NCBI RefSeq assembly: GCF_001421485.1
Contig: NZ_LMKK01000003.1
Span: 682,001 to 746,000, forward strand
Origin: Agreia sp. Leaf210
GTDB taxonomy: Bacteria > Actinomycetota > Actinomycetes > Actinomycetales > Microbacteriaceae
DNA: 64,000 nt
Reading direction: 5' to 3'
Shown here: one piece after another, positions 39,854-57,590 of the stretch
Position numbering within the stretch: the first letter of the stretch is position 1
Layout of the letters: every line of letters starts with the position of its first letter
Translations under genes and position numbers: made by a program
The notes under the pieces: generated by a model
The model's input: only the letters and a program-made list of their open reading frames with translations
Database searches by the model: none
Told to the model about the DNA's origin: nothing

Positions 39854-40855
<1,002 letters not shown>

Positions 40856-41012: not shown

Positions 41013-41080
41013 CGTGCAGATATGGTGTAGTCACCCGCTTGCTGTGGGGCTCTGCACGAGGTGACGACGGTGTCACGTGA
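41013..41080. promoter_or_regulatory. Inverted-repeat cluster in the dhaK/glpF divergent promoter region
   Basis: The 237-bp gap between dhaK and glpF contains CGTGCAGA (41013-41020) and its exact complement TCTGCACG (41051-41058). Nested with it are GTCACC (41030-41035)/GGTGAC (41060-41065), GTGAC-N6-GTCAC (41061-41076) and the palindrome TCACGTGA (41073-41080) just before the glpF ribosome-binding site. These are candidate operators; no regulator gene is present locally. Confidence 0.45.
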
Positions 41081-41092
41081 AGGAAGGTCAAT

Positions 41093-41965
41093 GTGGACAA
41101 TCTCGGGGTTGTATTTCTTGCGGAGCTGGTAGGCACCGCTCTGCTGGTTCTGTTGGGCTGTGGTGTCGTCGCGAACGTCGCGCTGGTGAAGAACAAGGGC
41201 TTCAACGGCGGCTTCCTCATGGTGAACATCGGCTGGGGCTTCGCGGTGTTCTCGGGTGTGATCGTGTCGTACAACAGCGGTGCGCACCTGAACCCGGCCG
41301 TCACGCTGGGGCTCGTCGCCAACGGCGCGACGGAGTTCGGCTCGGGTGTTCCGGTGAACATCGTGTCGATCCTCACCTACATCGCCGCTCAGCTGTTGGG
41401 TGCGATCATCGGTGCCGTGTTCGTGTGGCTGGCATACAAGCAGCACTTCGACGAGGAGCCCGACGCGGCCAACAAGCTCGGCGTCTTCTCGACCGGCCCC
41501 GCCATCCGCTCCTACGGCTGGAACCTGGTCACCGAGGTCATCGGCACCTTCGTCCTGGTGTTCGTGGTGATCGGTTTCGGTCGGCAGGAGCCGGGCGGCG
41601 GTCTCGCTGCGCTGGGCGCTCTTCCGGTGACTACGGCTGGAACCTGGTCACCGAGGTCATCGGCACCTTCGTCCTCCTACGGCTGGAACCTGGTCACCGA
41701 GGTCATCGGCACCTTCGTCCTGGTGTTCGTGGTGATCGGTTTCGGTCGGCAGGAGCCGGGCGGCGGTCTCGCTGCGCTGGGCGCTCTTCCGGTGGCGATC
41801 CTCGTGATCGCGATCGGCGCATCCCTCGGTGGCCCGACCGGCTACGCGATCAACCCGGCCCGTGACCTCGGCCCGCGCATCGCGCACGCCCTGCTACCCA
41901 TCAAGGGCAAAGGATCGTCCGACTGGTCCTACTCCTGGATCCCGCCCGACCGGCTATCCTCGTGA
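41093..41965 (+). CDS. glpF: Glycerol uptake facilitator GlpF, disrupted by internal duplications
   Basis: An aquaglyceroporin frame with GTG start and AAGGAAGG upstream. The first NPA box is in [11 protein letters not shown] and the second is NPARDLGPR. The frame is 290 residues because a 165-bp in-frame insertion repeats the helix [19 protein letters not shown] and adds junk ([15 protein letters not shown]). It then ends early at IPPDRLSS because a 158-bp duplication shifts the frame, so the last membrane helix is lost. Deleting 41630-41794 and 41935-42092 restores a 252-codon gene through 42174. It is either a real mutation or an assembly fault. Confidence 0.75.
41510..41794 (+). repeat. 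Repeat A in glpF: one 120-bp unit twice plus a 44-bp partial copy
   Basis: The unit 41510-41629 recurs exactly at 41675-41794 (period 165 bp, 55 codons). Between them 41631-41674 is a third, partial copy of the unit start (ACGGCTGGAACCTGG...). The unit covers one membrane helix and its loop. Confidence 0.95.
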
Positions 41966-42092
41966 TCGCGATCGGCGCATCCCTCGGTGGCCCGACCGGC
42001 TACGCGATCAACCCGGCCCGTGACCTCGGCCCGCGCATCGCGCACGCCCTGCTACCCATCAAGGGCAAAGGATCGTCCGACTGGTCCTACTC
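41798..42092 (+). repeat. Repeat B in glpF: 137-bp perfect direct repeat, out of frame
   Basis: 41798-41934 is identical to 41956-42092, offset 158 bp (not a multiple of three). The 21-bp spacer contains CCCGACCGGCTA, itself a piece of the repeat interior (about 41833-41844). Recombination between the copies would remove 158 bp and restore the true C-terminus. Confidence 0.95.
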
Positions 42093-42174
42093 GTGGGTCC
42101 CGGTCGTCGGCCCCATCATCGGAGGCGTCCTCGCCGGCCTCGCGGCTGTCCCGCTCCTCCCGATCATCACGTGA
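41962..42174 (+). pseudogene. glpF: Detached C-terminal part of glpF
   Basis: 70 codons in another frame: the repeated NPARDLGPR loop region, then the authentic end [22 protein letters not shown] with the last membrane helix. There is no ribosome-binding site of its own at the GTG. It is best read as the separated 3' end of glpF. Confidence 0.8.
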
Positions 42175-42253
42175 CCTCCCAGCGGGCCCGGGCACCATGG
42201 TGACCGGGCCCGCTGCTTGCACCGGACCGAAGAATTTAACGAAGGAGTTAGAC

Positions 42254-43735
42254 ATGACGGATTACATCCTGGCGATCGACCAGGGCACCACCAGTACCCG
42301 AGCGATCGTCTTCGATCACGCCGGGTCGATCGTATCGACGGGGCAGCTCGAACACGAGCAGATCTTCCCGAAGGCGGGCTGGGTCGAGCACAACCCGAAG
42401 GAGATCTGGGACAACACGAGAGAGGTCATCGGGCAGGCCCTCTCGAAGGCCAACATCACTCGCCACAACATCAAGGCCGTCGGCATCACGAACCAGCGGG
42501 AGACCGCCGTCGTCTGGGACAAGAACACGGGCGAACCCGTGTACAACGCCATCGTCTGGCAAGACACCCGCACCCAGGCCATCGTCGACCGGGATGTGGT
42601 GGGCCTCCCCCTCTCGACGTACTTCGCCGGAACGAAGATCGTCTGGATCCTCGAGAACGTCGAGGGCGCCCGGGAACGAGCAGAAGCCGGCGATCTGCTG
42701 TTCGGAACCACGGACAGCTGGGTCACCTGGAATCTGACCGGCGGGGTCGACGGCGGCGTCCACATCACCGACGTCACCAACGCCAGTCGCACGCTCTTCT
42801 TGAACCTCGAGACCCTGGAGTGGGACGACGAGATCCTCGCCGTCTTCGACGTGCCGAAGTCCATGCTGCCCGAGGTCAAGAGCTCCTCCGAGGTGTACGG
42901 CCTCGTGCATGACTCGAGCCTCCTTCGCGAGGTTCCCGTCGCGGGCATCCTGGGCGACCAGCAGGCGGCCACGTTCGGTCAGGCCGCGTTCGACAAGGGC
43001 GAGGCCAAGAACACCTACGGCACCGGCAACTTCCTGATCTTCAACACCGGCACCGACATCGTCAAGAGCGAGAACGGTCTGCTCACCACCATCGGGTACA
43101 AGCTCGGCGACGGCGAGACCCACTACGCCCTCGAAGGCTCCATCGCCGTCACCGGCTCGCTCATCCAGTGGCTGCGCGACAACCTCGGGATCATCTCGTC
43201 GGCGCCCGAGGTAGAGGCACTGGCAGACACCGTCGACGACAACGGCGGCGCGTACTTCGTGCCCGCGTTCTCGGGTCTCTTCGCGCCGCACTGGCGCTCG
43301 GATGCCCGTGGCGCGCTGGTCGGCCTCACTCGGTACGTGAACAAGGGCCACATCGCCCGCGCCGCGATCGAGGCCATCGCGTTCCAGACCCGCGAGGTTC
43401 TCGACGCGGTCAACGCCGACTCAGGTGTTCCGCTGACCGAGCTCAAGGTCGACGGCGGAGCATCCGCCAACGACCGCCTGATGCAGTTCCAGGCCGACAT
43501 CCTCGACGTGCCGGTCGTTCGCCCGGTCGTCGCAGAGACAACGGCGCTCGGCGCGGCCTACGCGGCCGGCCTCGCTGTGGGCTTCTGGTCGACCCTCGAT
43601 GAACTGCGCGACAACTGGCAGGAAGACAAGCGTTGGACGCCCAACCTCGACGTCGCGGAGCGCGAGCGACTGTTGCGCAACTGGAAAAAGGCTGTCACGA
43701 AGACCCTCGACTGGGTCGACGAAGACACGCAGTGA
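42254..43735 (+). CDS. glpK: Glycerol kinase GlpK
   Basis: ATP-dependent phosphorylation of glycerol to glycerol-3-phosphate. The 493-residue FGGY kinase has [15 protein letters not shown], the glycerol-binding WQDTRT and [13 protein letters not shown], and the C-terminal ATP motif [19 protein letters not shown]. The start is ATG 42254 with GAAGGAG upstream, 79 bp after glpF, in one operon. No glpD is in the window. Confidence 0.96.
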
Positions 43736-43736
43736 G

Positions 43737-44789
43737 TCAGTGACGCGTGGCTTCGGCCCACGCGTCGAGAGTGGCCGTCGCCGCACCGGAATCGATCGTC
43801 CGGGCGGCCACGGCCATTTTTTCGCGCAGACGCTCGACGATCGACCGCCGTCCCTGCTCCGGATCGGATGCGAGGTCGAACGCGACGAGTCCCGCAGCCG
43901 CGTTCAACAGGACGATGTCGCGGACCGGCCCCGACTCCCCCCGCAGAACCCGCCGCGCGATGTCCGCGTTGTGCTCGGCGTCGCCACCCAGCAGATCGCT
44001 GATCTTCGCTCGAGAGAGTCCGAGGTCCCGGGGGTCGAGGTCGTGCTCCACCACAGCCCCGAGCGAGACCTCCCAGATGTGGCTGTGGCCCGTCGTCGTC
44101 AGCTCATCGAGCCCATCGTCGCCTCGGAAGACGAGCGCCGTCGCTCCTCTGGTCTGAAAGACACCCACGAAGATCGGCACCCTGTCGAGTTGCGCGACAC
44201 CGACAGCGGATGCCTCGGGCCTGGCCGGATTACAGAGCGGCCCGAGGTAGTTGAAGACCGTCGGCACGCCCAACTCCCGCCTGACGTTGGCGACATTGCC
44301 GAAGCCGGGATGGAACTTGGCAGCGAACGCGAACGTGATTCCCGCCTCGTCGAGCACTTCAGCGGTGCGCACGTTGGAGATGTCGAGATCGACACCCAGC
44401 GCCTGGAGCACGTCGGAGGAGCCGGACTTCGAACTCGCGGCCCTGTTTCCGTGCTTCACGACAGGAACGCCAGCAGCAGCAGCCACGATCGACGCCATCG
44501 TCGAGACGTTGACCGTGCCGTGCCTGTCGCCGCCGGTGCCGACGATGTCGAGCGCCATCGGGTCGACGTCGAGGCCGACAGCGTGGTCGAGTACCGCATC
44601 CCGGAACCCGACGATCTCATCGACCGTCTCCCCCTTGGCACGCAACGCGATGAGAAAGGCGGCGAGTTGAGCGTCGGATGCCTCACCCGACATGATCTGA
44701 TCCATCGCCCACGAGGAGTCCGACACCGAGAGATCGTCTCGAGCAAGAAGAGTGGAGAGAATTTCGGACCAGGACTCTGAGTACGCCAT
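43737..44789 (-). CDS. trpD: Anthranilate phosphoribosyltransferase TrpD
   Basis: Second committed step of tryptophan synthesis: anthranilate plus PRPP. The 350 residues show the PRPP motifs DIVGTGGDRHGTVNVST and KHGNRAASSKSGSSD and the GLDELTTTGHSHIWE segment. It is isolated from other trp genes, next to the respiratory cluster as in other Actinobacteria. It ends 1 bp from the glpK stop (convergent). Confidence 0.95.
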   Translation of the reverse strand: MAYSESWSEILSTLLARDDLSVSDSSWAMDQIMSGEASDAQLAAFLIALRAKGETVDEIVGFRDAVLDHAVGLDVDPMALDIVGTGGDRHGTVNVSTMASIVAAAAGVPVVKHGNRAASSKSGSSDVLQALGVDLDISNVRTAEVLDEAGITFAFAAKFHPGFGNVANVRRELGVPTVFNYLGPLCNPARPEASAVGVAQLDRVPIFVGVFQTRGATALVFRGDDGLDELTTTGHSHIWEVSLGAVVEHDLDPRDLGLSRAKISDLLGGDAEHNADIARRVLRGESGPVRDIVLLNAAAGLVAFDLASDPEQGRRSIVERLREKMAVAARTIDSGAATATLDAWAEATRH

Positions 44790-44893
44790 AGGCCGATTCT
44801 AAAGGCCGGACAGCTGCCGAGTCGGTGTCAATGGGCCCCGCGACTCATACCCAAATGCAAAAACCCTGTGCTGATATCGGACATAATGGAGAA

Positions 44894-45523
44894 GTGACGA
44901 GCAGCTCCCTGACCCAGACTTCGAGTGCCCCGCTGATTCAACGACCGAACGTCGTGGCAGTGGGCACAATCGTGTGGCTCGGAAGCGAGGTGATGTTCTT
45001 CGCCGGCCTCTTCGCTATCTACTTCACACTCCGCAGTACGTCCGGCCCACTGTGGGAGAGTGAGTCGAGCGTTCTCAACGTTCCCTTCTCCCTCGTGAAC
45101 ACCCTCATCCTCGTGGCGAGCTCGTTCACCTGCCAGGCAGGCGTATTCGCCGCGGAGCGCCTGCAGGCGCGTGCGACCGGCTGGAAGCCGACGCAATGGG
45201 GTACGACCGAGTGGTTCTTCCTCACCTATCTCCTGGGCGCGATCTTCGTGTCAGGCCAGATCTTCGAGTACGCGACCCTCGTCTCCGAGGGCATCTCGAT
45301 GAGCTCCAGCGCCTACGGCTCGGCCTTCTACCTGACCACCGGTTTCCACGGTCTGCACGTGACCGGCGGACTCATCGCGTTCCTGCTTGTGATCGGTCGC
45401 ATCTTTGCCGTCAAGAACATGGGGCATCGTGAGGCGACCAGCGCCATCGTCGTGTCGTACTACTGGCACTTCGTCGACGTGGTCTGGATCGGCCTGTTCC
45501 TCGTCATCTACGTGCTGAAATAA
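44894..45523 (+). CDS. ctaE: Cytochrome c oxidase subunit III CtaE
   Basis: A five-helix aa3 oxidase subunit III of 209 residues; motifs include the [10 protein letters not shown] and [10 protein letters not shown] segments. The start is GTG 44894. No ribosome-binding site is seen, and a -10-like CATAAT (44882-44887) sits just before it, so the mRNA may be leaderless. First gene of ctaE-qcrC-qcrA-qcrB. Confidence 0.93.
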
Positions 45524-45551
45524 TCGACCGGCCCACCCGAGCACCGGTCGA
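45524..45551 (+). other. Hairpin between ctaE and qcrC
   Basis: TCGACCGG (45524-45531) pairs with CCGGTCGA (45544-45551) around a 12-nt loop. There is no T-tract, so it may modulate or process the operon mRNA rather than end it. Confidence 0.35.
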
Positions 45552-45563
45552 ACAAAGAGAGTT

Positions 45564-46370
45564 GTGAAAAGAGTGAAGAGAATGGCCCGAAAAGGCAGCA
45601 CGGCAAACAGACGTCATCCCTTGGCGACTGTTGCCCTGATCGCAATCGGACTCATGTTCACGGGTGGTGGTTACGCGCTCTTCAGCAGCACGGCCACGGC
45701 CGAGACCAGCACGGCCTCGCAGACGACGATCGACGAGGGTAAGAAGCTCTTCGCCGCCAACTGCGCCAGCTGCCACGGACTCGACCTCCAGGGCACCGGC
45801 GCAGGTCCCAGCCTCCTCGGCGTGGGCGCCGCATCGGTCGACTTCCAGGTCGGCACTGGCCGCATGCCGATGGCGATGCAGGGCCCGCAGGCCATGGAGA
45901 AGGCGCCGCAGTTCACCGCCGAGGACACCGAGGCGCTGGCCGCATATGTCGCGTCCCTGTCCCCCGGCCCTGCCGTTCCCGACGAGAGCCTCCTCGACGG
46001 CGAAGGAGACGCCAGCAACGGCGCCGAGTTGTTCCGCATCAACTGCGCCATGTGCCACAACGTGGCAGGAGCAGGTGGAGCTCTCACCGAGGGCAAGTTC
46101 GCGCCCGCACTAACCGGAGTCGCTGCAGTGCACATCTACGAGGCCATGGTCACCGGCCCGCAGAACATGCCGGTCTTCAACGACAAGAACCTCTCCCCCG
46201 AAGACAAGCGCGACGTCATCACGTACCTCAAGTACATCGAGAAGAACCCGTCTCCGGGCGGATACGAACTCGGCAGCCTGGGCCCCGTGGCCGAGGGACT
46301 CTTCGTGTGGATCTTCGGACTGGGCGCCATCGTGGCCCTGACCGTCTGGCTCACCGCGAAGTCGAACTAG
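45564..46370 (+). CDS. qcrC: Cytochrome bc1 complex di-haem cytochrome c subunit QcrC
   Basis: The actinobacterial cytochrome cc subunit that links bc1 and aa3 directly. An N-terminal signal anchor (ATVALIAIGLMFTGGGYAL) precedes two haem c sites, CASCH (67-71) and CAMCH (161-165), and a C-terminal membrane helix. The GTG at 45564 is used; ATG 45582 would give a protein six residues shorter. Confidence 0.94.
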   Translation: MKRVKRMARKGSTANRRHPLATVALIAIGLMFTGGGYALFSSTATAETSTASQTTIDEGKKLFAANCASCHGLDLQGTGAGPSLLGVGAASVDFQVGTGRMPMAMQGPQAMEKAPQFTAEDTEALAAYVASLSPGPAVPDESLLDGEGDASNGAELFRINCAMCHNVAGAGGALTEGKFAPALTGVAAVHIYEAMVTGPQNMPVFNDKNLSPEDKRDVITYLKYIEKNPSPGGYELGSLGPVAEGLFVWIFGLGAIVALTVWLTAKSN

Positions 46371-46459
46371 ACCAGCGGTCCGACCGCGCACACATTCTTC
46401 ACCGAGGCGAGGACGACCTGTAAAGGACGGCCTCGAAGAAAAGCTCGAAAGGCAATCAC

Positions 46460-47536
46460 ATGGCACATGACGATATGAGCGGCAAGGACATCACCGCTGT
46501 TTCGTCGACTGGCGTCTCCCACGAGACGGCAGCTCCCGGCACGGCCGTCATCCCTTCTGAGACGTTCGAGAACCCGGGCTTCCCGGTTCACCGTCAGCGC
46601 GTGACAGACACCGACCCGAAGGCCGAGAAGACGGCCGAGCGTCAGGTCTATACGTTCTTCTACCTGTCGATCGTCGGAAGCATCTTCGCGATTGCCTCGT
46701 ACATGGCGTTCCCCATCGAAGACGGCGACACGGGCGCCCTGCGCCTGCACACGATGATGCTCGGAATCGGCATCGTGCTCGCCCTCTTCGGTCTGGGATT
46801 CGGTGCCGTGCACTGGTCGAAGGCACTGATGGCCAATCACGAGGGCATCGATCAGCGACACCCCGTTCGTGGAAGCGAAGAGACGCGCGCCCGTGCCGTG
46901 GAGATCTTCAAGCAGGCCAATGAGGAGTCGGGCTTCGGGCGACGCACCCTCGTTCGCAACACTCTGCTCGGCGCTCTCGTCGCCTTCCCCCTTCCCGCGG
47001 TCGTTCTCTTCCGCGGCTGGGGTCCTCAGAACGAGAACCCCGTCGAAATGCTCGAGCACACGATGTGGAAGAAGGGCGCACGCCTGACCCTCGACCCGTC
47101 TGGATTGCCGATCAAGGCCTCCGACGTCACGCTCGGCTCCGCATTCCATGTGATCCCCGAGGGCCTCAACGAGTCGGAGCACCGTCTCGAAGAGAAGGCG
47201 AAGGCCTCTGTCCTCCTCATGCGTCTCGATCCCTCCAAGCTCAAAGAGAGCGCGGAGCGAACGGGATGGTCGTACGACGGCATCGTCGCGTACTCCAAGA
47301 TCTGCACGCACGTCGGGTGCCCCGTCGCCCTCTACGAGCAGCAGACGCACCACCTGCTCTGCCCCTGCCACCAGTCGACTTTCGACGTCACCGAAGAATG
47401 CAAGGTCATCTTCGGTCCGGCGAAGCGCGCACTCCCGCAGCTGCCGATCGCCGTTGACGGCGAAGGCTACCTGATCGCCCAAAGCGATTTCCACGAACCC
47501 GTCGGCCCGAGCTTCTGGGAGCGATCTTCATCATGA
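46460..47536 (+). CDS. qcrA: Cytochrome bc1 complex Rieske iron-sulfur subunit QcrA
   Basis: The 358-residue actinobacterial Rieske protein with three membrane helices (about 65-82, 98-117 and 168-185) and a [2Fe-2S] domain. The ligands are in CTHVGC (282-287) and CPCH (301-304). It overlaps qcrB by 4 bp. Confidence 0.95.
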   Translation: MAHDDMSGKDITAVSSTGVSHETAAPGTAVIPSETFENPGFPVHRQRVTDTDPKAEKTAERQVYTFFYLSIVGSIFAIASYMAFPIEDGDTGALRLHTMMLGIGIVLALFGLGFGAVHWSKALMANHEGIDQRHPVRGSEETRARAVEIFKQANEESGFGRRTLVRNTLLGALVAFPLPAVVLFRGWGPQNENPVEMLEHTMWKKGARLTLDPSGLPIKASDVTLGSAFHVIPEGLNESEHRLEEKAKASVLLMRLDPSKLKESAERTGWSYDGIVAYSKICTHVGCPVALYEQQTHHLLCPCHQSTFDVTEECKVIFGPAKRALPQLPIAVDGEGYLIAQSDFHEPVGPSFWERSSS

Positions 47537-49176
47537 GTACAGTGACCACGCCGGAGACAGCACCTGCCCCGGCACCCGCACAATCGTCTTCATCGCAGCG
47601 GAGCAGCACGAGCCGCTTCACCGAGGCAGCCGCTAACTACATCGACGAGCGCACCAGCATCTCGGGCGTCGTCAAGGAGTTCGGCCGCAAGATCTTCCCT
47701 GATCACTGGTCGTTCATGCTCGGTGAGGTCGCCCTCTACAGCTTCGTCGTCATCCTCTTGACGGGAACGTTCCTGACGTTCTTCTTCCAGGCATCGATGG
47801 CCGAAGTCGTCTACAACGGCTCCTACGTCCCCCTCAAGGGTGTCGAGATGTCCACGGCCATGTCGTCGACGCTGAACATCTCGTTCGACGTCCGCGGTGG
47901 TCTGCTCATCCGCCAGATCCACCACTGGGCAGCCCTGACCTTCATCGCGGCCATCGGCATCCACATGCTGCGCATCTACTTCACCGGCGCATTCCGCAAG
48001 CCCCGCGAGTTGAACTGGGTCATCGGTTTCATCCTCTTCATCCTCGCTCTGGCAGAAGGCTTCACCGGATACTCGCTTCCTGACGATCTCCTGTCGGGCA
48101 ACGGCCTGCGCATCATCGACGGTCTAATCAAGGGACTGCCTGTTGTCGGAACCTGGATCTCCTTCCTGCTCTTCGGCGGAGAGTTCCCCGGAACTGACAT
48201 CGTCGGACGCCTGTATTCGCTGCACATCCTGTTGCTGCCGGCGATCCTGGCCGTCATGCTCGCCCTGCACCTCGTGTTCGTCGTCGTACACAAGCACACC
48301 CAGTGGTCGGGTCCGGGCCAGACGAAGGACAACGTCGTCGGCTCCCCCATCCTCCCGATGTTCGCCGCCAAGGCCGGTGGCTTCTTCTTCATCGTCTTCG
48401 GCGTCATCGCCCTGATGGGAACGTTCTTCACGATCAACCCCATCTGGAACTACGGCCCCTACGACCCGTCGCCGGTGTCTGCGGGTACGCAGCCTGACTG
48501 GTACATCGGATTCGCCGACGGTGCGCTGCGTCTGATTCCGCCGGGACTCGAGTTCGAGCTCTGGGACCGCACCTGGTCATTCAACATCATCATCCCGGTG
48601 CTCATCCTGACCGGCCTCATCGTCGCCGTGCTCGTCTACCCCTTCATCGAGGCATGGATCACCGGTGACAAGCGCGAGCACCACCTGCTCGACCGCCCGC
48701 GCAACGCTCCGACCCGCACCGCCATCGGTGTCGCCGGCGTTCTGTTCTACGCGGCCCTGTGGGGTGCTGCGAGCTCCGACCTCATCGCCACGCACTTCCA
48801 GCTGTCGATCGAGGGCGTGATCCACGTGAATCAGGCTCTGCTCATCCTCGGCCCGATCATCGGATACCTGGTCACCAAGCGCGTGTGCCTCGCCCTGCAG
48901 AAGAAGGACCGCGAGATCGCCCTGCACGGTTTCGAGTCCGGACGCATCGTGCGCCTGCCGGGTGGCGAGTACATCGAGGTGCACCAGCCCGTCGACGAGT
49001 ACGAGCGCTGGAAGCTGGTGGATTACAACGACTACCAGCCCCTCATGATCCGCCCGAATGCACAGGGCAAGATCACGACGGTCCAGCGCTTCCGCGCAGG
49101 CATGTCGCGCTGGTTCTTCGAAGACCGCATCGCTCCGGTCAGCCCCAAGGAGATCGAGCGCGGCGGTCACCACTAG
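47533..49176 (+). CDS. qcrB: Cytochrome bc1 complex cytochrome b subunit QcrB
   Basis: The quinol-oxidising membrane subunit. 547 residues with eight or nine helices; haem-b histidines fall in RQIHHWAALTF and in the SLHILLLPAILAVMLALHLVFV helix region, and the PEWY-type Qo loop is TQPDWYIGF (PDWY). It has the actinobacterial C-terminal extension. This subunit is the target of telacebec-type drugs in mycobacteria. A strong terminator follows. Confidence 0.95.
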   Translation: MSTVTTPETAPAPAPAQSSSSQRSSTSRFTEAAANYIDERTSISGVVKEFGRKIFPDHWSFMLGEVALYSFVVILLTGTFLTFFFQASMAEVVYNGSYVPLKGVEMSTAMSSTLNISFDVRGGLLIRQIHHWAALTFIAAIGIHMLRIYFTGAFRKPRELNWVIGFILFILALAEGFTGYSLPDDLLSGNGLRIIDGLIKGLPVVGTWISFLLFGGEFPGTDIVGRLYSLHILLLPAILAVMLALHLVFVVVHKHTQWSGPGQTKDNVVGSPILPMFAAKAGGFFFIVFGVIALMGTFFTINPIWNYGPYDPSPVSAGTQPDWYIGFADGALRLIPPGLEFELWDRTWSFNIIIPVLILTGLIVAVLVYPFIEAWITGDKREHHLLDRPRNAPTRTAIGVAGVLFYAALWGAASSDLIATHFQLSIEGVIHVNQALLILGPIIGYLVTKRVCLALQKKDREIALHGFESGRIVRLPGGEYIEVHQPVDEYERWKLVDYNDYQPLMIRPNAQGKITTVQRFRAGMSRWFFEDRIAPVSPKEIERGGHH

Positions 49177-49201
49177 CCTCTCTGCGACGTAGCGCAATCT
49201 G

Positions 49202-49244
49202 ATCCGCCGGATCGTCTCACTCGAGGCGATCCGGCGGATTTTTT
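49202..49244 (+). terminator. Rho-independent terminator of the ctaE-qcrCAB operon
   Basis: A perfect 13-bp stem, 49202-49214 with 49227-49239, followed by a six-T run (49239-49244). Confidence 0.92.
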
Positions 49245-49374
49245 AGCATTCTCCTCTCATGAACTTCACCTGCTCCGCATGGTGGCTGCGCTAGCAGCCG
49301 GTTGAAGTATGTTCACGGGCTGCACGCAGCTCGTGACAGGCGCGAGAACTCCGTGCAGCTCCCCCAGTCGGGAG
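49244..49374 (+). promoter_or_regulatory. Tryptophan attenuator upstream of trpS
   Basis: A -10-like TAGCAT (49244-49249) lies just before the leader ATG at 49259, suggesting a leaderless leader mRNA. Segment 1 GGCTGC (49284-49289) overlaps the second leader Trp codon and pairs with segment 2 GCAGCC (49294-49299). Segment 2 can instead pair with segment 3 GGCTGC (49318-49323). Segment 3 forms a 9-bp stem with segment 4 (49314-49322 with 49327-49335). A further hairpin CTCCC/GGGAG (49359-49374) would hide the trpS ribosome-binding site and competes with pairing 49317-49326 to 49352-49361. This is the classical 1:2, 2:3, 3:4 layout. Confidence 0.7.
49259..49294 (+). CDS. Tryptophan leader peptide (11 residues)
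   Basis: An ATG-initiated frame encoding MNFTCSAWWLR and stop, with tandem TGG codons at 49280-49285. Its second Trp codon and stop lie inside the first attenuator hairpin. The position, 86 bp upstream of a tryptophanyl-tRNA synthetase gene, and the WW pair fit a sensor of charged tRNA-Trp, as shown for the auxiliary trpS of Streptomyces coelicolor. Confidence 0.72.
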   Translation: MNFTCSAWWLR

Positions 49375-49380
49375 ACACAG

Positions 49381-50292
49381 ATGGATTCATTCAGCGCAAC
49401 AGCAGAACGCTCGATCGGGATCGCGGCTGCGGTAACGCGGCAACCCGAGAGCTTTCGCGTCGTCACCGGAGAACGGCCGACGGGCCCTTTGCATCTCGGG
49501 CAATACTTCGGCGCGATTAGAGAGCGTGTTCGACTGCAGGAGGCCGGCATCGACATGTCCCCGGTCCTCGCGGACTACCAGGTCATCACCGACCGCGACA
49601 CAACGGCTCACGTCCGCGAGAACGTGTACGGAGCGGTATTGGACTACCTCGCGGCGGGCATAGATCCTCAGCGGGCCACGATCTCCACTCACTCGTCGGT
49701 GCTGGCTCTCAACCAGCTGCCTCTGCCGTTTCTCAGCCTCGTTACCGAAGCCGAACTGCACCGCAACCCGACAGTCAAAGCGGAGTCCACGGCATCTGGG
49801 CGAGCCTTGAGCGGGCTGCTCTTGACCTACCCGGTACATCAGGCGGCCGACATCCTGTTCTGCAAGGGCAATCTGATGCCGGTCGGCAAGGACAACCTTC
49901 CGCATGTCGAGATGACCCGCGTGATCGCCAGACGGTTCAACGAACGCTACGGCCAGGTGTTTCCCATGCCGGATGCCCTCATCACCTCGGCGCCGGAGGT
50001 TCCGGGTCTCGACGGCCGCACGATGTCGAAGAGCTACGGCAACTCGATCTCGCTCTCGATGACGCCGGACGAGACCGTCGATGCGATCCATCGCACCCGC
50101 ACAGATCAGGACCGCAAGATCGCCTTTGACCCGGAGCGCAGGCCGGGTGTCTCAGCACCCTGTCGACGGCGAGCATTCGCCGAAGATCCTGATCTCGCGA
50201 GCAGAATCCTCCGTGGCGGAAATGAGGCTGCGAATTCCACCGCAGAGGCTACGCTGGCCGAGGTGCGCGCAGCGATGGGAACGATCTACTGA
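49381..50292 (+). CDS. trpS: Auxiliary-type tryptophanyl-tRNA synthetase with internal C-terminal deletion
   Basis: A class I synthetase of 303 residues. It has PTGPLHLGQYFG (HIGH-like box 38-41, with Gln at the last position), ADYQVITDRD and MSKS (215-218). Usual TrpRS proteins are about 330-350 residues. Here PERRPGVS (about residue 258) jumps to RRRAFAEDPDL, skipping about 45 residues of the helical anticodon-side domain. The tail RGGNEAANSTAEATLAEVRAAMG is then back in register. GGGAG precedes ATG 49381. The YQVITDR type suggests a second, not the housekeeping, TrpRS. It may be functional, altered or decaying. Confidence 0.75.
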   Translation: MDSFSATAERSIGIAAAVTRQPESFRVVTGERPTGPLHLGQYFGAIRERVRLQEAGIDMSPVLADYQVITDRDTTAHVRENVYGAVLDYLAAGIDPQRATISTHSSVLALNQLPLPFLSLVTEAELHRNPTVKAESTASGRALSGLLLTYPVHQAADILFCKGNLMPVGKDNLPHVEMTRVIARRFNERYGQVFPMPDALITSAPEVPGLDGRTMSKSYGNSISLSMTPDETVDAIHRTRTDQDRKIAFDPERRPGVSAPCRRRAFAEDPDLASRILRGGNEAANSTAEATLAEVRAAMGTIY

Positions 50293-50315
50293 CCGACCGG
50301 GCACGAACAGCACAA

Positions 50316-50347
50316 AGGGCCCGTCTCGAATGAACGAGACGGGCCCT
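50316..50347. terminator. Bidirectional terminator between trpS and ctaF
   Basis: A perfect 13-bp inverted repeat, AGGGCCCGTCTCG (50316-50328) with 50335-50347, around a 6-nt loop, between convergent genes. Confidence 0.85.
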
Positions 50348-50362
50348 GAAGCGCGCGTGGAT

Positions 50363-50779
50363 CTAGCGGGCGAAGTACCCGCGGTAGTACTCGTAGACCC
50401 AGCCGACGATCGCGACAAGAACGAGGGCGACACCGATGAAGGTGATCCAGGTTCCCACAGCGAAGCCCAGCAGCATGAGCGAGGCCGATCCCGCGAGGAT
50501 GACGGGCCACCAGCTCCAGGGGCTGTAGAAGCCCATCTCGGGGTCACCGTCGTCGATGTCCGAGTCGAGTCGGTCTTCGGGCAGATCGCCACCCTGGGCG
50601 CTGAAGACGCGGCCCAGGTAGAACGCGAGGAAGGCGGAGAGAACACCCGCGAGGCCGATGCCCAGGGCTCCTACCCACTCGACGTTGCCCTGGTCGAGGA
50701 TGTGCCAGAAGATGTACACCGCTGAGAGCAGCAGACAGAAGACCGCCAGGATCCAGAAGAGGTTCTTGTTCGCTCTCAT
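50363..50779 (-). CDS. ctaF: Cytochrome c oxidase subunit IV CtaF (actinobacterial)
   Basis: A 138-residue, four-helix actinobacteria-specific subunit: helices at about 8-28, 35-55, 93-110 and 112-130, with the loop GFYSPWSWWPVILAG. Last gene of the ctaC-ctaD-ctaF operon. Confidence 0.92.
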   Translation of the reverse strand: MRANKNLFWILAVFCLLLSAVYIFWHILDQGNVEWVGALGIGLAGVLSAFLAFYLGRVFSAQGGDLPEDRLDSDIDDGDPEMGFYSPWSWWPVILAGSASLMLLGFAVGTWITFIGVALVLVAIVGWVYEYYRGYFAR

Positions 50780-50782
50780 GTT

Positions 50783-52519
50783 TTACTTCACCTTCTCGGA
50801 TGCTGTGTCGTACGTGGGAGCGTCTGGCGCGTCTTTCGCCGGCCCCACTCCGAACGGGATGCCCGCCTCGGGGTGGTTGAGGTCGAATGCGGGAGACTCG
50901 CTGCGGATGCGCGGAATCGACGTGAAGTTGTGCCGCGGCGGCGGGCACGAGGTGGCCCATTCGAGAGATCGCGAGTATCCCCACGGGTCGTTGACCGTGA
51001 CCTTCGGAGCCCGGCGAGCCGTGATGTACACGTTCAGGAAGAAAGGCACCAGGGACGCGGCCAGCAGGAACGCACCGACTGTCGAGACCTGGTTCATCGA
51101 GGTGAATCCGTCCTGCGGCGAGTACGTGGCGTAACGACGAGGCATACCCACAACGCCGAGCCAGTGCTGAATCAGGAATGTGGTGTGGAAGCCGATGAAC
51201 AGCATCCAGAAGTGCCACTTGCCCAGGGTCTCGTTGAGCATCTTGCCGGTCCACTTGGGCCACCAGAAGTAGAACCCGCTGAACATGGCGAAGACGACGG
51301 TCCCGAAGACGACGTAGTGGAAGTGGGCCACGACGAAATACGAGTCCGAGACATGGAAGTCGAGCGGCGGCGACGCCAGGATGACGCCGGTGAGTCCACC
51401 GAACGTGAACGTGATGAGGAAGCCGATGGCCCACAGCATGGGCGTCTCGAAGGTGACGGAACCTCGCCACATCGTGCCGATCCAGTTGAAGATCTTCACA
51501 CCCGTGGGAACCGCGATCAGCATGGTCATCAGGGCGAAGAAGGGCAGCAGCACCGAGCCCGTGACATACATGTGGTGAGCCCAGACGGTGACCGAGAGCG
51601 CTGCGATGGAGATCGTCGCGTAGATCAGCGTCTTGTAGCCGAAGATCGGCTTGCGACTGAAGACTGGGAACACTTCCGACACGATGCCGAAGAACGGCAG
51701 CGCGATGATGTAGACCTCGGGGTGACCGAAGAACCAGAAGAGGTGCTGCCAGAGCAGCACTCCCCCGTTGGCAGCGTCGTAGACATGCGCACCGAGGATG
51801 CGGTCGGCACCGAGAGCGAACAGAGCGGCCGCGAGAACCGGGAACGCCATCAGCACGAGGATGGACGTGACGAGGATGTTCCAGGTGAAGATCGGCATGC
51901 GGAACATGGTCATACCCGGCGCACGCATCGTGATGATGGTGGTGATGAAGTTCACCGCTCCGAGAATCGTTCCGAATCCCGAGATTCCCAGGCCTATGAC
52001 CCAGAGGTTTCCGCCGTCACCCGGGGTGAACGTCTCGCTCGAGAGAGGAGCGTACGCGAACCATCCGAACGAGGCCGCGCCCTGGGGGGTGAGGAAGCCT
52101 GCGACAGCAATGAGGCTGCCGAAGCTGTAGAGCCAGTATGCGAAGGCGTTCAGTCGCGGGAAGGCGACGTCGGGCGCTCCGATCTGCAGCGGCATGAGGA
52201 CGTTTGCGAAACCCGCGAACAGCGGGGTCGCGAACATCAGCAGCATGATCGTGCCGTGCATGGTGAACAGCTGGTTGTACTGGTCCTTGGTCTGCAGGAT
52301 CTCGAGCCCGGGCTCGAAGAGCTGAGCACGGATGACCAGCGCCATCACTCCACCGAGGCAGAAGTAGATGAACGAGGAGATCAGGTACATGTACCCGATG
52401 GTCTTGTGGTCGGTGGAGGTGATCCACTTGACCAGGACGTTGCCCTTGCGCTCAGCGCTGCGGGACTGTCCGTCGTTGAGGGCCTGACCGGTGGTCGGCG
52501 CTACGGCTGTGGTCGTCAT
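50783..52519 (-). CDS. ctaD: Cytochrome c oxidase subunit I CtaD
   Basis: The catalytic aa3 subunit, 578 residues, 12 helices. The conserved regions include [13 protein letters not shown] (haem a), [11 protein letters not shown] (CuB His-Tyr), WAHHMYVTG (CuB His pair) and [14 protein letters not shown] (haem a3/a His). ATG start, 3-bp gap to ctaF. Confidence 0.96.
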
Positions 52520-52529
52520 GTGCGTTCCC

Positions 52530-53396
52530 CTACTCCGCTACCCGGGGCGACGTCGTGCCGGGGAGGTTCTGATTTCTGTCGTACTCGTGTCCGAGCTGGC
52601 CGTTGAAGCCGGCGTCCTTCAGAGACTTGATATACGCGTCGTATTCGTCTTGAGAGACGACCTTGACGTTGAAGAGCATGAGCGAGTGATACTCGCCACA
52701 GAGCTCGGCGCACTTACCGCTGTACGTTCCCTCTCGCTCCGGCGTGACGTACATGTAGTTCGTCTTGCCGGGGATCATGTCTTTCTTGTAGAGGAAGTCG
52801 ATGACCCAGAAGGAGTGGATGACGTCGCGAGCCTCGAGCTGGATCTCGATCTTCTTGCCGACGGGCAGGTAGAGCGTGGGGATCTCGGACTCGACAAGCG
52901 TGCCCTTGGCGTCGTCGGGGTCTTCCTGGCCCTGGATGCCTGCGGAGTAGACGTCTTCGTCGACGTAGTTGAAGTCCCACGCCCACTGCTTGCCGTAGAC
53001 GGCGATCGTCACATCGGGGTCGTCGTACTTGGCCTCGATGGCCGACTGGTCACGAGCGGTGAAGGCGAAGAATCCCAGCACCAGGATCAGAGGGACGACC
53101 GTGTAGAAGATCTCGATCGGCATGTTGTAGCGCAGCTGAGCGGGAAGACCGGTCTGTCCGCGGCGACGGCGGTAGACGATCACGGCCCAGAGCGTCAGGC
53201 CCCAGGTGATGACTCCGACGATGAGGAGCACGATCCACGACGTGACCCAGAGTCCGATCACGCGGTCGACGTTGTTCGTCGTGCCGGGTTCGGTGGGCAG
53301 CCATCCCTGCAGCTGCTGCTGAGTGCAGCCTGCGAGGAGGAGTGCAAGGGTGGCCGCAATGGGAATTGCAGCCAGGCGGAGACGTCGAGAGCGCAC
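52530..53396 (-). CDS. ctaC: Cytochrome c oxidase subunit II CtaC
   Basis: Carries the CuA centre. A lipoprotein signal with lipobox LLAGC (Cys24) is followed by two membrane helices and the cupredoxin domain, with CuA ligands in [14 protein letters not shown]. 288 residues, GTG start. First gene of ctaC-ctaD-ctaF, 10 bp before ctaD. Confidence 0.95.
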
Positions 53397-53491
53397 CAGT
53401 TACCTTTCGGAAGACTGTCGGAGGAACTACCGACAAGTGTAGAGAACCGTGCTCTAGCCTACTCGACATAACACGCGCGCCTGAATCCACA

Positions 53492-53554
53492 AAGGGAGCC
53501 GCTTGACAGCGACTCCCTTGCGGAACAGCGTAATTCCGGGCCTCTGCGGGCCCG
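53492..53554 (-). terminator. Tandem hairpins downstream of erpA
   Basis: CGGGCC/GGCCCG (53537-53554) lies just after the erpA stop. A second hairpin, AAGGGAGCCGC (53492-53502) with 53509-53519 (one mismatch), is followed on the minus strand by TTTG. Together they separate erpA from ctaC. Confidence 0.65.
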
Positions 53555-53559
53555 AAGAA

Positions 53560-53922
53560 TCAGTGGAACGAATCGCCGCAGGCGCAGCTTCCGCCGGCGT
53601 TGGGGTTGTCGATCGTGAAGCCCTGCTTCTGGATGGTGTCTTCGAAGTCGATGGTCGCGCCATCGAGGTAGGGAACGCTCATCTCATCGACGATCACCTC
53701 GACACCGTTGTAGTCGACGACGGCATCGCCATCGAGCTGGCGCTCGTCGAAGTACAGCTGGTAGATGAGGCCCGAGCAGCCGCCGGGCTGCACGGCGACG
53801 CGCAGCCGGAGGTCTTCACGACCCTCCTGGATGAGGAGGCTACGCACCTTCTCTGCTGCGGCGTCGGTGACGCCCACGCGGTGGCTGGGAGCCTCGGTCT
53901 GGGTCAATACGGTGTCGCTCAT
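53560..53922 (-). CDS. erpA: Iron-sulfur cluster insertion protein ErpA (HesB/IscA family)
   Basis: A 120-residue A-type Fe-S carrier. The three ligand cysteines are Cys49 (GGCSGL) and the CAC pair 113/115 (SCACGDSF). AGGAG precedes the ATG. It is next to the oxidase genes, as in other Actinobacteria. Confidence 0.94.
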   Translation of the reverse strand: MSDTVLTQTEAPSHRVGVTDAAAEKVRSLLIQEGREDLRLRVAVQPGGCSGLIYQLYFDERQLDGDAVVDYNGVEVIVDEMSVPYLDGATIDFEDTIQKQGFTIDNPNAGGSCACGDSFH

Positions 53923-53948
53923 GGCTGCTCCTAGTAAGTCGGGAAAGC

Positions 53949-53986
53949 ACGTGCGTCGTGATGCGCGATGTATCGCACACGCACGT
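53949..53986. promoter_or_regulatory. Nested inverted repeats upstream of erpA
   Basis: ACGTGCGT (53949-53956) with ACGCACGT (53979-53986), enclosing GCGAT-GT-ATCGC (53965-53976). The site is between the end of the M20 gene and the erpA start, so it may be an operator for erpA or a terminator for the upstream gene. Confidence 0.4.
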
Positions 53987-54030
53987 CGCTACTCGTCAGT
54001 CTAAACACGCAAACCCTGCTCGGGCGGAAT

Positions 54031-55461
54031 TCATTCCGCCAGCTGCTCGAGAGTTCGCTCGTTCAGACGCGCGAGCAGAAGCGCTTCGCTCACGATCGCG
54101 CGCTTCAGCACGCCCAGGTGCTGGGATTCGTTGGGGCTGTGCGCCCGGGTGTCGGGGTCTTCGACTCCTGTTACGAGAATCTGCGCCGCAGGAAACACGC
54201 GGGCGAGGTCGGAGATGAATGGAATGGATCCGCCGATCCCCGTCTCTACGGCTTCGACGCCCCACCCGTTTCTCATGGCCGTCTTCGCTTCGCGCACGGC
54301 CCAGCCGCTCGTATCGACGAGGAACGCGTCACCGAGGTCGACATCGCTGAACTCGATCGCGGCCCCGAAGGGGGCATTATCGCGCAGGTGCTTCTCGATC
54401 GCGTCGAACGCATCGCTCGCCTTCTGACCCGGTGCGATGCGAGAGCTGATGCGCACGGCCACCTGCGGCAAGAGCGTATTGGATGCGTTGGCGACGCTGG
54501 GTGCATCGATTCCGGTGACGCTGATGGCCGGCTGAAACCACAGACGCGACAGGATCGAACCATGGCCGATGCTCGTGACGCCGTCCACGAATCCCGCCTC
54601 GTGCGCCAGCTGGCTTTCGGGATAGTCCGGCGTCACGTCCTGTGTGCCGACGAGTCCATCGACGGCGACGGAGCCGTCGTCGCCATGCAGCGACGCGAGG
54701 AGCCGGACGGTCGCGAGCATCGCATCCGGAGCGGCGCCGCCGAACATGCCCGAGTGCGACGCGTGCTCGAGCGTTCGCACGGTGAGCTTGAAGGTGACGT
54801 TGCCACGAAGGCTGATCGTGATGGCCGGGGTGTCGATGTTCCAGTTGTCGGAGTCCGCGACGACGATAACGTCGGCCTCGAGCTGATCGCGGTGCTTGTC
54901 GAGGAACGCGGAGAACGACCGTGAACCGAATTCCTCCTCGCCCTCGATGAAGACGACCAGTCCCACGTCGAATTCGTTCGCCGTGGCCTCGACGAGCGCG
55001 CGGACGGACGCGATATGCGACACGACGCCCGCTTTGTCGTCGGATGCGCCGCGACCGTAGAGACGGTCGCCGCGGATGGTCGGTTCGTACGGGGCGGACT
55101 CCCAATCGGCGTCGTCGCCGGGAGGCTGGACGTCGTGGTGAGCGTAGAGCAGCACCGTGGGCCGGCCGTTCTTCGCCGCGCGTGACGCCAGCACGGCGGG
55201 CTGGCCGAGAGCGCCCTCCGGGGTCTCTGCCTGCGACACGATCACCGAGTCGAAGGCACCCGTCTCTTCGAGCAGCGAGGCGACGGCGTCAGCACTCTGG
55301 GCGACGAAGGCACGATCGAACGCGTCCCATGACACCGACGGGATTCGCACCAGATCGGTCAGAGTCGCGACGGACCCCGGCATGTTCTGTTCGACGATGC
55401 GCCGGACCTCCGCCTGCAGATCGGTCTCGTCAGAATGCGTCGTGCCCGTGTTCTCAGTCAT
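54031..55461 (-). CDS. M20 family dipeptidase
   Basis: A 476-residue zinc peptidase of the CNDP/PepV-like group. Metal and catalytic segments are LLYAHHDVQPPG, YGRGASDDKAG, FIEGEEEFGS, ADSDNW and a late His (SPNESQHLG). The dimerisation domain includes RTLEHASHSGMFGGAAPD. The start is ATG 55461, with no ribosome-binding site and a TATAAA -10 element nearby, so it is probably leaderless. Confidence 0.9.
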   Translation of the reverse strand: MTENTGTTHSDETDLQAEVRRIVEQNMPGSVATLTDLVRIPSVSWDAFDRAFVAQSADAVASLLEETGAFDSVIVSQAETPEGALGQPAVLASRAAKNGRPTVLLYAHHDVQPPGDDADWESAPYEPTIRGDRLYGRGASDDKAGVVSHIASVRALVEATANEFDVGLVVFIEGEEEFGSRSFSAFLDKHRDQLEADVIVVADSDNWNIDTPAITISLRGNVTFKLTVRTLEHASHSGMFGGAAPDAMLATVRLLASLHGDDGSVAVDGLVGTQDVTPDYPESQLAHEAGFVDGVTSIGHGSILSRLWFQPAISVTGIDAPSVANASNTLLPQVAVRISSRIAPGQKASDAFDAIEKHLRDNAPFGAAIEFSDVDLGDAFLVDTSGWAVREAKTAMRNGWGVEAVETGIGGSIPFISDLARVFPAAQILVTGVEDPDTRAHSPNESQHLGVLKRAIVSEALLLARLNERTLEQLAE

Positions 55462-55471
55462 AGAGGTAAAC

Positions 55472-55479
55472 TTTATACT
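55472..55479. promoter_or_regulatory. Overlapping divergent -10 elements
   Basis: Minus-strand TATAAA (55472-55477) for the dipeptidase gene and plus-strand TATACT (55474-55479) for the DUF3043 gene share four bases. RNA polymerase can serve only one promoter at a time. Confidence 0.5.
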
Positions 55480-55507
55480 TCTGCACTTCTCGGCAAGGAC
55501 GTACATC

Positions 55508-56077
55508 GTGGCCAAAGACAAAGCCCCCGCTCTCGAAGCACCGCTCGAAGACGCCCCTCTCAGCGGCAAAGGCCACGCGACGCCCACGCGCAAAGAACGC
55601 GAAGCGGCGAACAAGCGTCCCCTCGTCGCCGGCGATAACAAAGAGGCCCGCAAGGCCTCGCGAGCGAAACTGCAGGAGTCCCGCGACCGAGCCCGCGTCG
55701 GCATGGCGAACGGCGAGGAGAAATTCCTGCCGATCCGAGACAAGGGGCCGCAGCGCCGCTACGTCCGCGATTACGTCGATGCGCGGTTCAGCCTCGGCGA
55801 GGTCATGATCCCCGTCATGTTCGCCGTGATCCTCGCGACGCTCGTGCCGAACCCCACGGTGCAGACGGCGTTGATGCTGGCCCTGTACGCGTTCGTCGTT
55901 CTGGTCGTCGTCGACAGCCTCCTGCTGGGCTGGCTCGTCACCCGCAAGCTCAAAGCGAAGTTCGGCGAAGAAAAGGTCGAGAAGGGTGTTCGCTGGTACG
56001 CGGCCATGCGCGCGCTGCAGCTGCGTCCCCTGCGCCTGCCCAAGCCTCAGGTGAAGCGCGGCAAATATCCCGTGTGA
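55508..56077 (+). CDS. DUF3043 family membrane protein
   Basis: An actinobacteria-specific protein of 189 residues. A long charged N-terminus (GKGHATPTRKEREAANKRPL, typical of DUF3043) is followed by two membrane helices (VMIPVMFAVILATLVP; ALYAFVVLVVVDSLLLGWLV) and a basic tail. GTG start. Function unknown. Confidence 0.88.
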   Translation: MAKDKAPALEAPLEDAPLSGKGHATPTRKEREAANKRPLVAGDNKEARKASRAKLQESRDRARVGMANGEEKFLPIRDKGPQRRYVRDYVDARFSLGEVMIPVMFAVILATLVPNPTVQTALMLALYAFVVLVVVDSLLLGWLVTRKLKAKFGEEKVEKGVRWYAAMRALQLRPLRLPKPQVKRGKYPV

Positions 56078-56115
56078 ACATTGACGGTCGGTATCCGACG
56101 TCAGACACTGAACCC

Positions 56116-56547
56116 ATGAGGTTCACCACGACCATCGTCCAAGACGGCAACAACGCCGGCATAGAGGTTCCGGCCGACATCATGTCGGCCCTGGGGTCGG
56201 AGAAACGTATCCCGGTCGTGGTCACGCTCGGGTCGCACTCGTACCGCAGCAGCGTCGCGCCGTACAGAGGTCGCTTGATGATCTCGCTGAGTGCGGCCAA
56301 CCGATCCGCGGCGAACGTTGCAGGGGGCGATCAGGTCGAGGTCGAGATCGAGCGCGATACGACCCCTCGAACCGTGACCGTTCCGGCAGACCTCGCTCGC
56401 GTGTTCATCGACGAACCCGACACGAAGGCGCGGTTCGAGGCGCTCTCGTACACGAACCAGAATCGCATCGCGCTGTCGATCGAGTCCGCCAAGACAGACT
56501 CCACTCGGCTGCGACGCGTCGACGCTGCGCTAGCCGAACTCCGCTAG
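56116..56547 (+). CDS. DUF1905/YdeI-type protein
   Basis: 143 residues with an N-terminal DUF1905 beta domain (FTTTIVQDGNNAGIEVPADI and a GRLMISLSAANR strand) and a C-terminal YdeI/OmpD-associated-type helix region (ARFEALSYTNQNRIALSIESAK). An upstream in-frame GTG at 56074 would overlap the DUF3043 gene. Its TAG shares a CTAG with the pyrD stop. Role unknown. Confidence 0.75.
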   Translation: MRFTTTIVQDGNNAGIEVPADIMSALGSEKRIPVVVTLGSHSYRSSVAPYRGRLMISLSAANRSAANVAGGDQVEVEIERDTTPRTVTVPADLARVFIDEPDTKARFEALSYTNQNRIALSIESAKTDSTRLRRVDAALAELR

Positions 56548-57590
56548 ACCCGCTCGACTGCCAGCAGCCGATCCAGGCCACGGTTGATCTGTCGCGCCCA
56601 GAGCGGCCCGCGGTAGAGAAATGCCGTGTACCCCTGCACCAACGTCGCACCGGCGCGCAGTCGCTCGACCACGTCGTCGGCCGTCTCCACTCCGCCGACC
56701 GAGATCACGCAGAGCTCGGCCGGGACGACAGAGCGGATGATGCGCAGGACGTCGATCGATCTCGCCGCGAGCGGTGCCCCTGACAGTCCCCCGGCTCCCG
56801 CTGCGACGACGGTCTTCTCCGTGGTTCGAAGGCCCTCCCGAGACAGCGTCGTATTCGTCGCGATGATGCCATCGAGATCCAGCTCGACGGCGAGTCGCGA
56901 GACTCTCTGCACCTCGTCGTCGGTGAGGTCGGGCGCGATCTTCACGAGAAGCGGGGTCGAACCGGCCTCTGTCTTCACCGCTCTGAGTAGCGGCTCGAGC
57001 TTGTCGATCTCCTGCAGTCCACGCAGGCCGGGCGTGTTCGGCGAGCTGACGTTGACGACGAGGTAATCGGCCACGGGCGCGAGGGCACGCGTGCTCGAGA
57101 TGTAGTCGCCGATCGCATCGTCGACCGCGACGATGCGGCTCTTTCCGATGTTGACACCGATGACGGGCCGCTTGCGGATGCCGGTGGCCTGGGCGACGCG
57201 AAGCGACGCCTCCGCCGCTCCCCCGTTGTTGAACCCCATGCGATTGACGACCGCGCGATCCGCGACGAGACGGAACAGGCGGGGCCGATCGTTGCCGGGC
57301 TGAGGACGGGCCGTGATCGTGCCCACCTCCACGTGTCCGAAGCCGAGCACGCCCAGCCCCTGGATGCCGCGGGCGTCCTTATCGAAACCGGCGGCGAGAC
57401 CGAACGGCGTGGGGAATTCGAGACCGAGCGCGTGCACCGAGTGGGACGACCGTGACGCGGTGAGACGACCGACAATGCCGCCGAGACCGAGTCGCGGAAT
57501 GAGGCGGATCACCGTGAACGCGAGGTGATGCGCCCGCTCCGGATCGATCCGGGTCAGGACATGGGCGAAGAGGAGCGCATACATTCTCAC
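56544..57590 (-). CDS. pyrD: Quinone-dependent dihydroorotate dehydrogenase PyrD
   Basis: A class 2 DHODH of pyrimidine synthesis, 348 residues. The N-terminal helices for membrane/quinone contact are present. It has [12 protein letters not shown], the catalytic Ser region [24 protein letters not shown] and [19 protein letters not shown]. It overlaps nrdR by 4 bp. Confidence 0.95.

What the first reader, a model, noticed from the sequence alone, without database searches (positions are those of the whole stretch)
49244..49380. Leader peptide with tandem Trp codons and 1-2-3-4 attenuator controlling trpS
An 11-codon leader (MNFTCSAWWLR) sits between the qcrB terminator and trpS. Four segments form three mutually exclusive pairings: 49284-49289:49294-49299, 49294-49299:49318-49323, and 49314-49322:49327-49335. 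A further hairpin masks the trpS ribosome-binding site. Stalling at the TGG pair would cover segment 1 and favour 2:3 over 3:4. An auxiliary trpS of Streptomyces coelicolor is known to be controlled by ribosome-mediated attenuation; the sequence here, in a likely Microbacteriaceae genome, supports the same logic plus a possible translational layer.
Basis: partly seen in the sequence, partly recalled or inferred. Interest (0 to 1): 0.75.

Follow-up and report, generated by a model that had tools for sequence, protein, structure and literature searches.

The report
Tryptophan-sensing leader switch before trpS
A tiny tryptophan-rich leader peptide and a set of competing RNA hairpins sit before a spare tryptophanyl-tRNA synthetase gene, a conserved actinobacterial switch that most likely hides or exposes the gene's ribosome-binding site, although in this particular genome the gene itself looks as if it is decaying.

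Summary
The leader MNFTCSAWWLR and all three named pairings are there and conserved: a Trp leader precedes this trpS in 60 of 63 actinobacterial loci scanned. (1) The leader is probably translated from a leaderless mRNA: TANNNT lies 6-7 nt before a possible leader start in 59 of 60 loci, the window being the exception. (2) Two more pairings are conserved: hub segment C5 (49317-49325) also pairs with downstream segment D (49353-49361; 97.8% of 554 cells), and the leader's own 5' end pairs with the stretch after segment 2 (0 of 10,000 permutations). (3) 59 of 60 leaders have no U-tract after 3:4. D instead abuts the anti-Shine-Dalgarno strand, so the output is most likely translation initiation. 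Equilibrium folding shows no opening on stalling. A crude co-transcriptional model moves C5 from C3 to B or D at most thresholds, but does not open the Shine-Dalgarno. The step from stall to ON is therefore inferred. Here trpS has a 43-codon deletion, two changed signature residues and dN/dS about 0.5, so this copy may be a relic.

The parts
49202..49244 (+). terminator hairpin of the upstream gene (49202-49214 with 49227-49239) and its T-tract, which abuts the leader promoter
   Evidence: read from the sequence; a similar repeat precedes the cassette in G001, G002, G005; not listed by the scan, whose loop limit is 8
49244..49249 (+). probable -10 element TAGCAT, 9 nt before the leader ATG. 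The hexamer in register with relatives (49247-49252) reads CATTCT instead of TANNNT
   Evidence: TANNNT 6-7 nt from a possible leader start in 59 of 60 loci, the window the only exception
49259..49294 (+). leader ORF MNFTCSAWWLR, no SD of its own, probably leaderless
   Evidence: SD-like 4-mer before the leader start in 2 of 60, before trpS in 52 of 60
49263..49268 (+). segment Z (5' part of leader ORF), pairs with Z'; 6 bp here, 9 bp in the nearest relative
   Evidence: permutation test 0 of 10,000 over 49 distinct pairs
49280..49285 (+). tandem Trp codons (TGG TGG), the sensor
   Evidence: 3 Trp in 36, 2 in 22, 1 in 2 of 60 leaders
49284..49289 (+). segment A (1)
   Evidence: A:B paired in 99.7% of cells
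49294..49299 (+). segment B (2)
49303..49308 (+). segment Z', pairs with the leader 5' end
49314..49325 (+). segment C5 (3), hub: pairs with B, C3 or D
49326..49335 (+). segment C3 (4)
49351..49363 (+). segment D: 49353-49361 pairs with C5 (49317-49325); its 3' end CUCCC (49359-49363) pairs with the SD
   Evidence: C5:D 97.8% of 554 cells, 18 double-change cells; D:E permutation z 3.1
49370..49374 (+). segment E: Shine-Dalgarno GGGAG of trpS, sequestered by D
49381..50292 (+). auxiliary trpS (303 aa), with a 43-codon deletion, H41Q and K214T

Best explanation
[not shown]
Confidence: 0.6

Rival explanations
1. Classical transcription attenuation: C5:C3 is a terminator that works without a U-tract (or with Rho or other factors), B:C5 is the antiterminator, and D and E are a secondary feature.
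For: 1-2-3-4 order and pairings conserved; Streptomyces relatives have a run of three or more T after the same hairpin in 18 of 24 leaders (counted from the 18 nt printed), and one divergent leader, L072, has six T there.
Against: Longest T run after C3 is 3 or less in 59 of 60 leaders; it leaves the covarying C5-loop:D pairing and the SD hairpin without a role.
Confidence: 0.25
2. In this genome the element is a relic: promoter, first helix and gene are drifting after the synthetase lost its function, whatever the element does in relatives.
Against: The reading frame is still open, the deletion is in frame, and A, B, C5, C3, D and the SD hairpin are intact. dS near 1 between the other pairs is saturated. 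An assembly error cannot be excluded. L061 and L072 have as many or more substitutions at conserved columns (10 and 8, window 8). The housekeeping-type TrpRS here has HLGN, so the changed His may be tolerated.
Confidence: 0.4
3. Reverse logic: trpS is opened when the ribosome does not stall, because B:C5 withholds C5 from D.
For: B, C3 and D all compete for C5, so B:C5 formally leaves D free to mask the SD; equilibrium folding of the window stalled at its first Trp codon gives B:C5 with D:E.
Against: It would shut a Trp synthetase when charged tRNA-Trp is short. C5:C3, not C5:D, is the commonest modelled unstalled state.
Confidence: 0.07
4. Chance: a small ORF and hairpins with no function.
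For: Single-sequence folding is only z -1.70.
Against: Conservation and covariation across many genera; a covariance model finds 6 leaders left out of it at 58-96 bits.
Confidence: 0.02

Closest known systems
Streptomyces auxiliary trpS attenuator (S. coelicolor trpS1; Vecchione and Sello 2010, paper not held, title seen in a reference list; a trpS2 attenuator predicted in S. avermitilis, PMC1262725, passages read)
   Same: Tandem-Trp leader before a homologous auxiliary TrpRS, leaderless promoter geometry, A:B, B:C5, C5:C3, and a D segment whose 3' end can pair with the SD (that these loci are the S. coelicolor trpS1 type is my inference)
   Different: Different leader and stem sequences; T run after C3 in 18 of 24; D complementary to C3, not to C5; not found by the covariance model of the window type (0 of 9 such loci given to it)
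Leaderless amino-acid leader peptides of actinobacteria, such as trpL2, leuL1 and metL of S. lividans (PMC8079986, passages read)
   Same: 5'-terminal start codon, TAnnnT promoters, these three without a typical U-rich terminator
   Different: trpL2 (MMTRTCTQLWRAA) precedes a trpS with one Trp codon; no SD-switch architecture is given in the passages seen
Polycysteine leaderless attenuators of mycobacteria (Canestrari 2020, known here only from a passage and reference in PMC9031893)
   Same: Leaderless short ORF whose ribosome speed controls translation of the next gene
   Different: Cysteine codons, other genes; no shared sequence was tested
E. coli trp attenuator (recalled)
   Same: 1:2, 2:3, 3:4 logic and Trp codons ahead of segment 1
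   Different: Intrinsic terminator, leader with its own SD, biosynthetic operon

Membership tests
Ribosome-mediated leader-peptide attenuator (general kind) | Short ORF with codons for the regulated amino acid | tested here: met
   Trp leader in 60 of 63 loci; two or three Trp in 58 of 60
Ribosome-mediated leader-peptide attenuator (general kind) | Mutually exclusive conserved RNA pairings | tested here: met
Ribosome-mediated leader-peptide attenuator (general kind) | Expression responds to the charged tRNA | not testable with these tools
   needs reporter assays
Transcription attenuator with intrinsic terminator | GC-rich 3:4 hairpin followed by a U-tract | tested here: not met
   T run 3 or less in 59 of 60
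Translational attenuator | SD sequestered in one of the alternative folds | tested here: met
   CUCCC:GGGAG; D:E above permutation, z 3.1
Translational attenuator | SD freed in the stalled state | tested here: inconclusive
   no opening at equilibrium or on average in the stepwise model
Streptomyces trpS leader (type I here) | D complementary to C3, and shared sequence | tested here: not met
Rfam families, including Trp leaders | Match to a covariance model | tested here: not met
   no match overlapping the leader in 40000-60000 at E up to 5

The most novel reading that the evidence does not exclude
Probability: 0.3. Interest if true: 0.65.

Novelty: new variant of a known kind. Interest (0 to 1): 0.45.

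Why it matters
If right, a widespread actinobacterial RNA family with no match in Rfam here controls auxiliary Trp synthetases by combining a leaderless leader peptide with Shine-Dalgarno masking and no terminator. It offers a compact, testable case of attenuation decided by the order of folding. It also gives a ready signature for finding auxiliary, possibly inhibitor-insensitive, TrpRS genes, and a warning that in some genomes the switch may outlive its gene.

Tried and rejected
Equilibrium folding with ribosome masks did not explain the switch. A proposed extra helix C3:X, between C3 and the stretch before D, which would balance the pairing budget, was only weakly above permutation (17 of 5000) and hardly above shuffled letters (12.47 against 11.97, sd 0.31), so it is not claimed. 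A covariance-model search of 396 phylum genomes was uninformative: only 10 candidates per genome were scored, the window scored 83.5 bits, and 4 weak matches at E 0.003-0.007 were not followed. A DNA pattern search of 396 genomes gave counts of the same order as its backwards control and was dropped. An in-frame upstream ATG at 49309 as the true trpS start was considered and set aside, because that ATG is absent in several aligned leaders (for example L008, L025, L042, L050).

Rows dropped: one search kept the best 80 of 208 relatives, so all counts concern the nearer ones. A1 used 54 of the 60 leaders. A2 used 52 of the 55 distinct leader stretches; L028, L072 and L074 were left out for long inserts. 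Of the 63 loci, L026 (locus cut short; found by the model at 95.9 bits), L034 and L048 gave no leader. The other 23 loci, mostly Bifidobacterium, were not in that set; the first scan gave one WW ORF among them (L077, judged chance). One search used 41 leaders after removing stretches 90% or more alike.

Full report
What is there. The leader ORF (49259-49294, MNFTCSAWWLR) and the three pairings are exactly as described. The SD GGGAG (49370-49374) can pair with CUCCC (49359-49363), 6 nt before the trpS ATG at 49381. The single-sequence fold is unremarkable (z -1.70, 11 of 200 shuffles as good) and Rfam has no match over the leader, so the case rests on comparison.

Conservation. tblastn-confirmed relatives of the window protein were fetched: the best 80 of 208 named loci, and the gene was found in 6 of 8 genomes of the genus, the window's own included. 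A Trp leader was found in 60 of the 63 loci scanned with the final rule. The other 23 loci, mostly Bifidobacterium, showed no credible leader in the first scan. Leaders have three Trp in 36, two in 22 and one in 2 of 60, and the first Trp is codon 8 in 51 of 60. A covariance model (R1) was run on 32 loci. It recovered L026, L164, L165, L169, L171 and L074, none of them in the model, at 58-96 bits, and gave weaker matches to L072 (31 bits) and L170 (26 bits). On the opposite strand only weak matches (14-18 bits, E 0.04-0.44) were listed. It gave none to 9 Streptomyces-type loci, 6 of the 23 loci without leader, L135, L140, L150, L172, L166, L034, L048, L001 and L002.

Leaderless leader. TANNNT ends 6 or 7 nt before the chosen start in 55 of 60 loci. 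In L044, L047, L052 and L058 it does so for another in-frame start codon, read from the sequences printed. The window alone has no such hexamer in register (CATTCT); its TAGCAT (49244-49249) lies 9 nt before the ATG. An SD-like 4-mer precedes the leader start in 2 of 60, against 52 of 60 for trpS. In S. lividans the -10 is TAnnnT and the -10 to start-site distance is 4-9 nt, with 88.7% at 5-7 (PMC8079986, passages). The simple scan found no full sigma-70 promoter.

Pairings. On 52 leaders, A:B and C5:C3 pair in 94.0% of 884 cells, with 31 double-change cells against 16.3 in shuffles (0 of 500). The count of pairs with a change on both sides, 4, is reached in 31 of 500 shuffles. The covarying pairs include C5 nucleotides that are loop in C5:C3, so C5:C3 does not explain them. 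B:C5 pairs in 89.4% of 414 cells; its core hardly varies. The leader's 5' end (Z) fits the stretch between B and C5 (Z') better than chance: mean score 16.3 against 12.2 permuted, 0 of 10,000, 49 distinct pairs; in some Nocardia-type rows the helix is short or absent. Gap-free helix permutations gave z 6.5 for C5:D, 5.1 for C5:C3, 3.1 for D:E (4 of 5000) and 2.8 for C3:X. Permutations ignore phylogeny and overstate significance.

Mechanism. C5 has three exclusive partners (B, C3, D) and D has two (C5, E). Of these pairings only C5:D keeps D off the SD. At equilibrium the SD is mostly masked in all states: mean unpaired 0.14 free, 0.13 and 0.14 stalled, 0.17 at the stop, 60 leaders. C5:D with a free SD is a median 7.1 kcal/mol above the minimum. 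A stepwise folding model of my own, which refolds only over barriers up to a threshold, gives a different picture for C5. In 41 non-redundant leaders at thresholds 7 and 9, C5:C3 forms in 33-38 and C5:D in 0-3 without a stall, against 9-15 and 14-20 with a stalled ribosome masked. In all 60 leaders, C5:D forms in 23 when stalled against 0 and 2 at threshold 8, and in 12 against 8 and 8 at threshold 6. At threshold 4 the effect is gone or reversed: 4 against 7 and 14, with C5:C3 in 36 against 34 and 37. SD exposure did not change on average. So the partner switch is modelled for some barrier heights, and the opening of the SD is inferred. For the window itself, stalled at its first Trp codon, the SD is mostly exposed at threshold 6 and masked at 8.

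Streptomyces comparison. The gene is in 44 of 246 genomes of the genus of G114 (I take this genus to be Streptomyces from genome size and leader, an inference). Of 30 loci fetched, 24 carry what I call a type I leader; 11 read MTSVPCRNWWRSS and the rest are variants. These have the same segment order, a run of three or more T after C3 in 18 of 24, and in 22 of 24 a D reading GGGCCGUCC, complementary to C3 GGACGGCCC (counts made by eye on the printed rows). D's 3' end pairs with the SD at equilibrium (mean 6.7-7.3 pairs). There the logic closes simply: stall gives 2:3, 4:5 and a free SD. The same modelling shows no switch there either (SD unpaired 0.17-0.19 at equilibrium, 0.25-0.27 stepwise), so its failure in the window type is not strong evidence. 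That attenuation of the S. coelicolor gene was shown experimentally rests on a title and recall.

State of this copy. The window trpS is 303 aa; six compared relatives (L005 and L018 near identical) have 346, and 43 codons are missing after RPGVSA. HLGH is HLGQ and KMSKS is TMSKS, each kept in 58 of 59 homologues; 8 substitutions and 8 deleted residues fall at columns 95% or more conserved; L061 has 10 and 3, L072 8 and 0. dN/dS to L005 is 0.49, against 0.04-0.08 for six pairs without the window, whose dS is saturated. The housekeeping-type trpS is elsewhere in the genome (355-aa frame, L002, with KMSKS and HLGN). The nearest solved structures by sequence are 1yi8 (tryptophanyl-tRNA synthetase) and 2a4m (tryptophanyl-tRNA synthetase II). 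The frame is open, so loss of function is likely but not proven.

Cassette. That gene's end is followed by other sequence in G003, G004, G006 and G007, although G004 and G006 carry leader and gene elsewhere. The gene is in 12 of 199 family genomes (E up to 1e-80) and 35 of 396 phylum genomes (E up to 1e-60). In the 29 phylum loci L135-L163 no credible leader was seen; two WW ORFs there were judged chance.

Literature. Predicted attenuators before trpS in some Streptomyces are in PMC1262725 (passages). Leaderless leader peptides are in PMC8079986 (passages). The listings showed no paper that I recognised as treating this leader in Microbacteriaceae or Nocardiaceae; the library lacks most subscription journals.

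Noticed in passing
window 49381-50292: The auxiliary trpS has a 43-codon in-frame deletion plus H41Q and K214T in the two class I signature motifs, with raised dN/dS against its nearest relative.
   Followed up: yes
window 49200-49260; L205-L211: Leader and trpS move as a unit: present after the upstream qcrB-type gene in G001, G002 and G005, absent there in G003, G004, G006 and G007, elsewhere in G004 and G006.
   Followed up: partly
L173-L202: Streptomyces-type leaders have a D segment complementary to C3 that also pairs with the trpS SD, suggesting a translational lock on top of the terminator.
   Followed up: partly
window 49309: An ATG between Z' and C5 is in frame with trpS (327-aa frame). 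Not conserved in all relatives.
   Followed up: partly
L170, L172: Divergent auxiliary trpS genes in the same family have WWW leaders with different hairpins, L170 with an eight-T run after its hairpin.
   Followed up: no
L041, L051, L064: Leaders whose Trp run has broken up (WRR, WRR, WTW) while the RNA segments stay intact.
   Followed up: no
L069, L074: tblastn matches end at query residue 258, as if the C-terminal part had diverged or shifted frame in these two Microbacterium genes as well.
   Followed up: no
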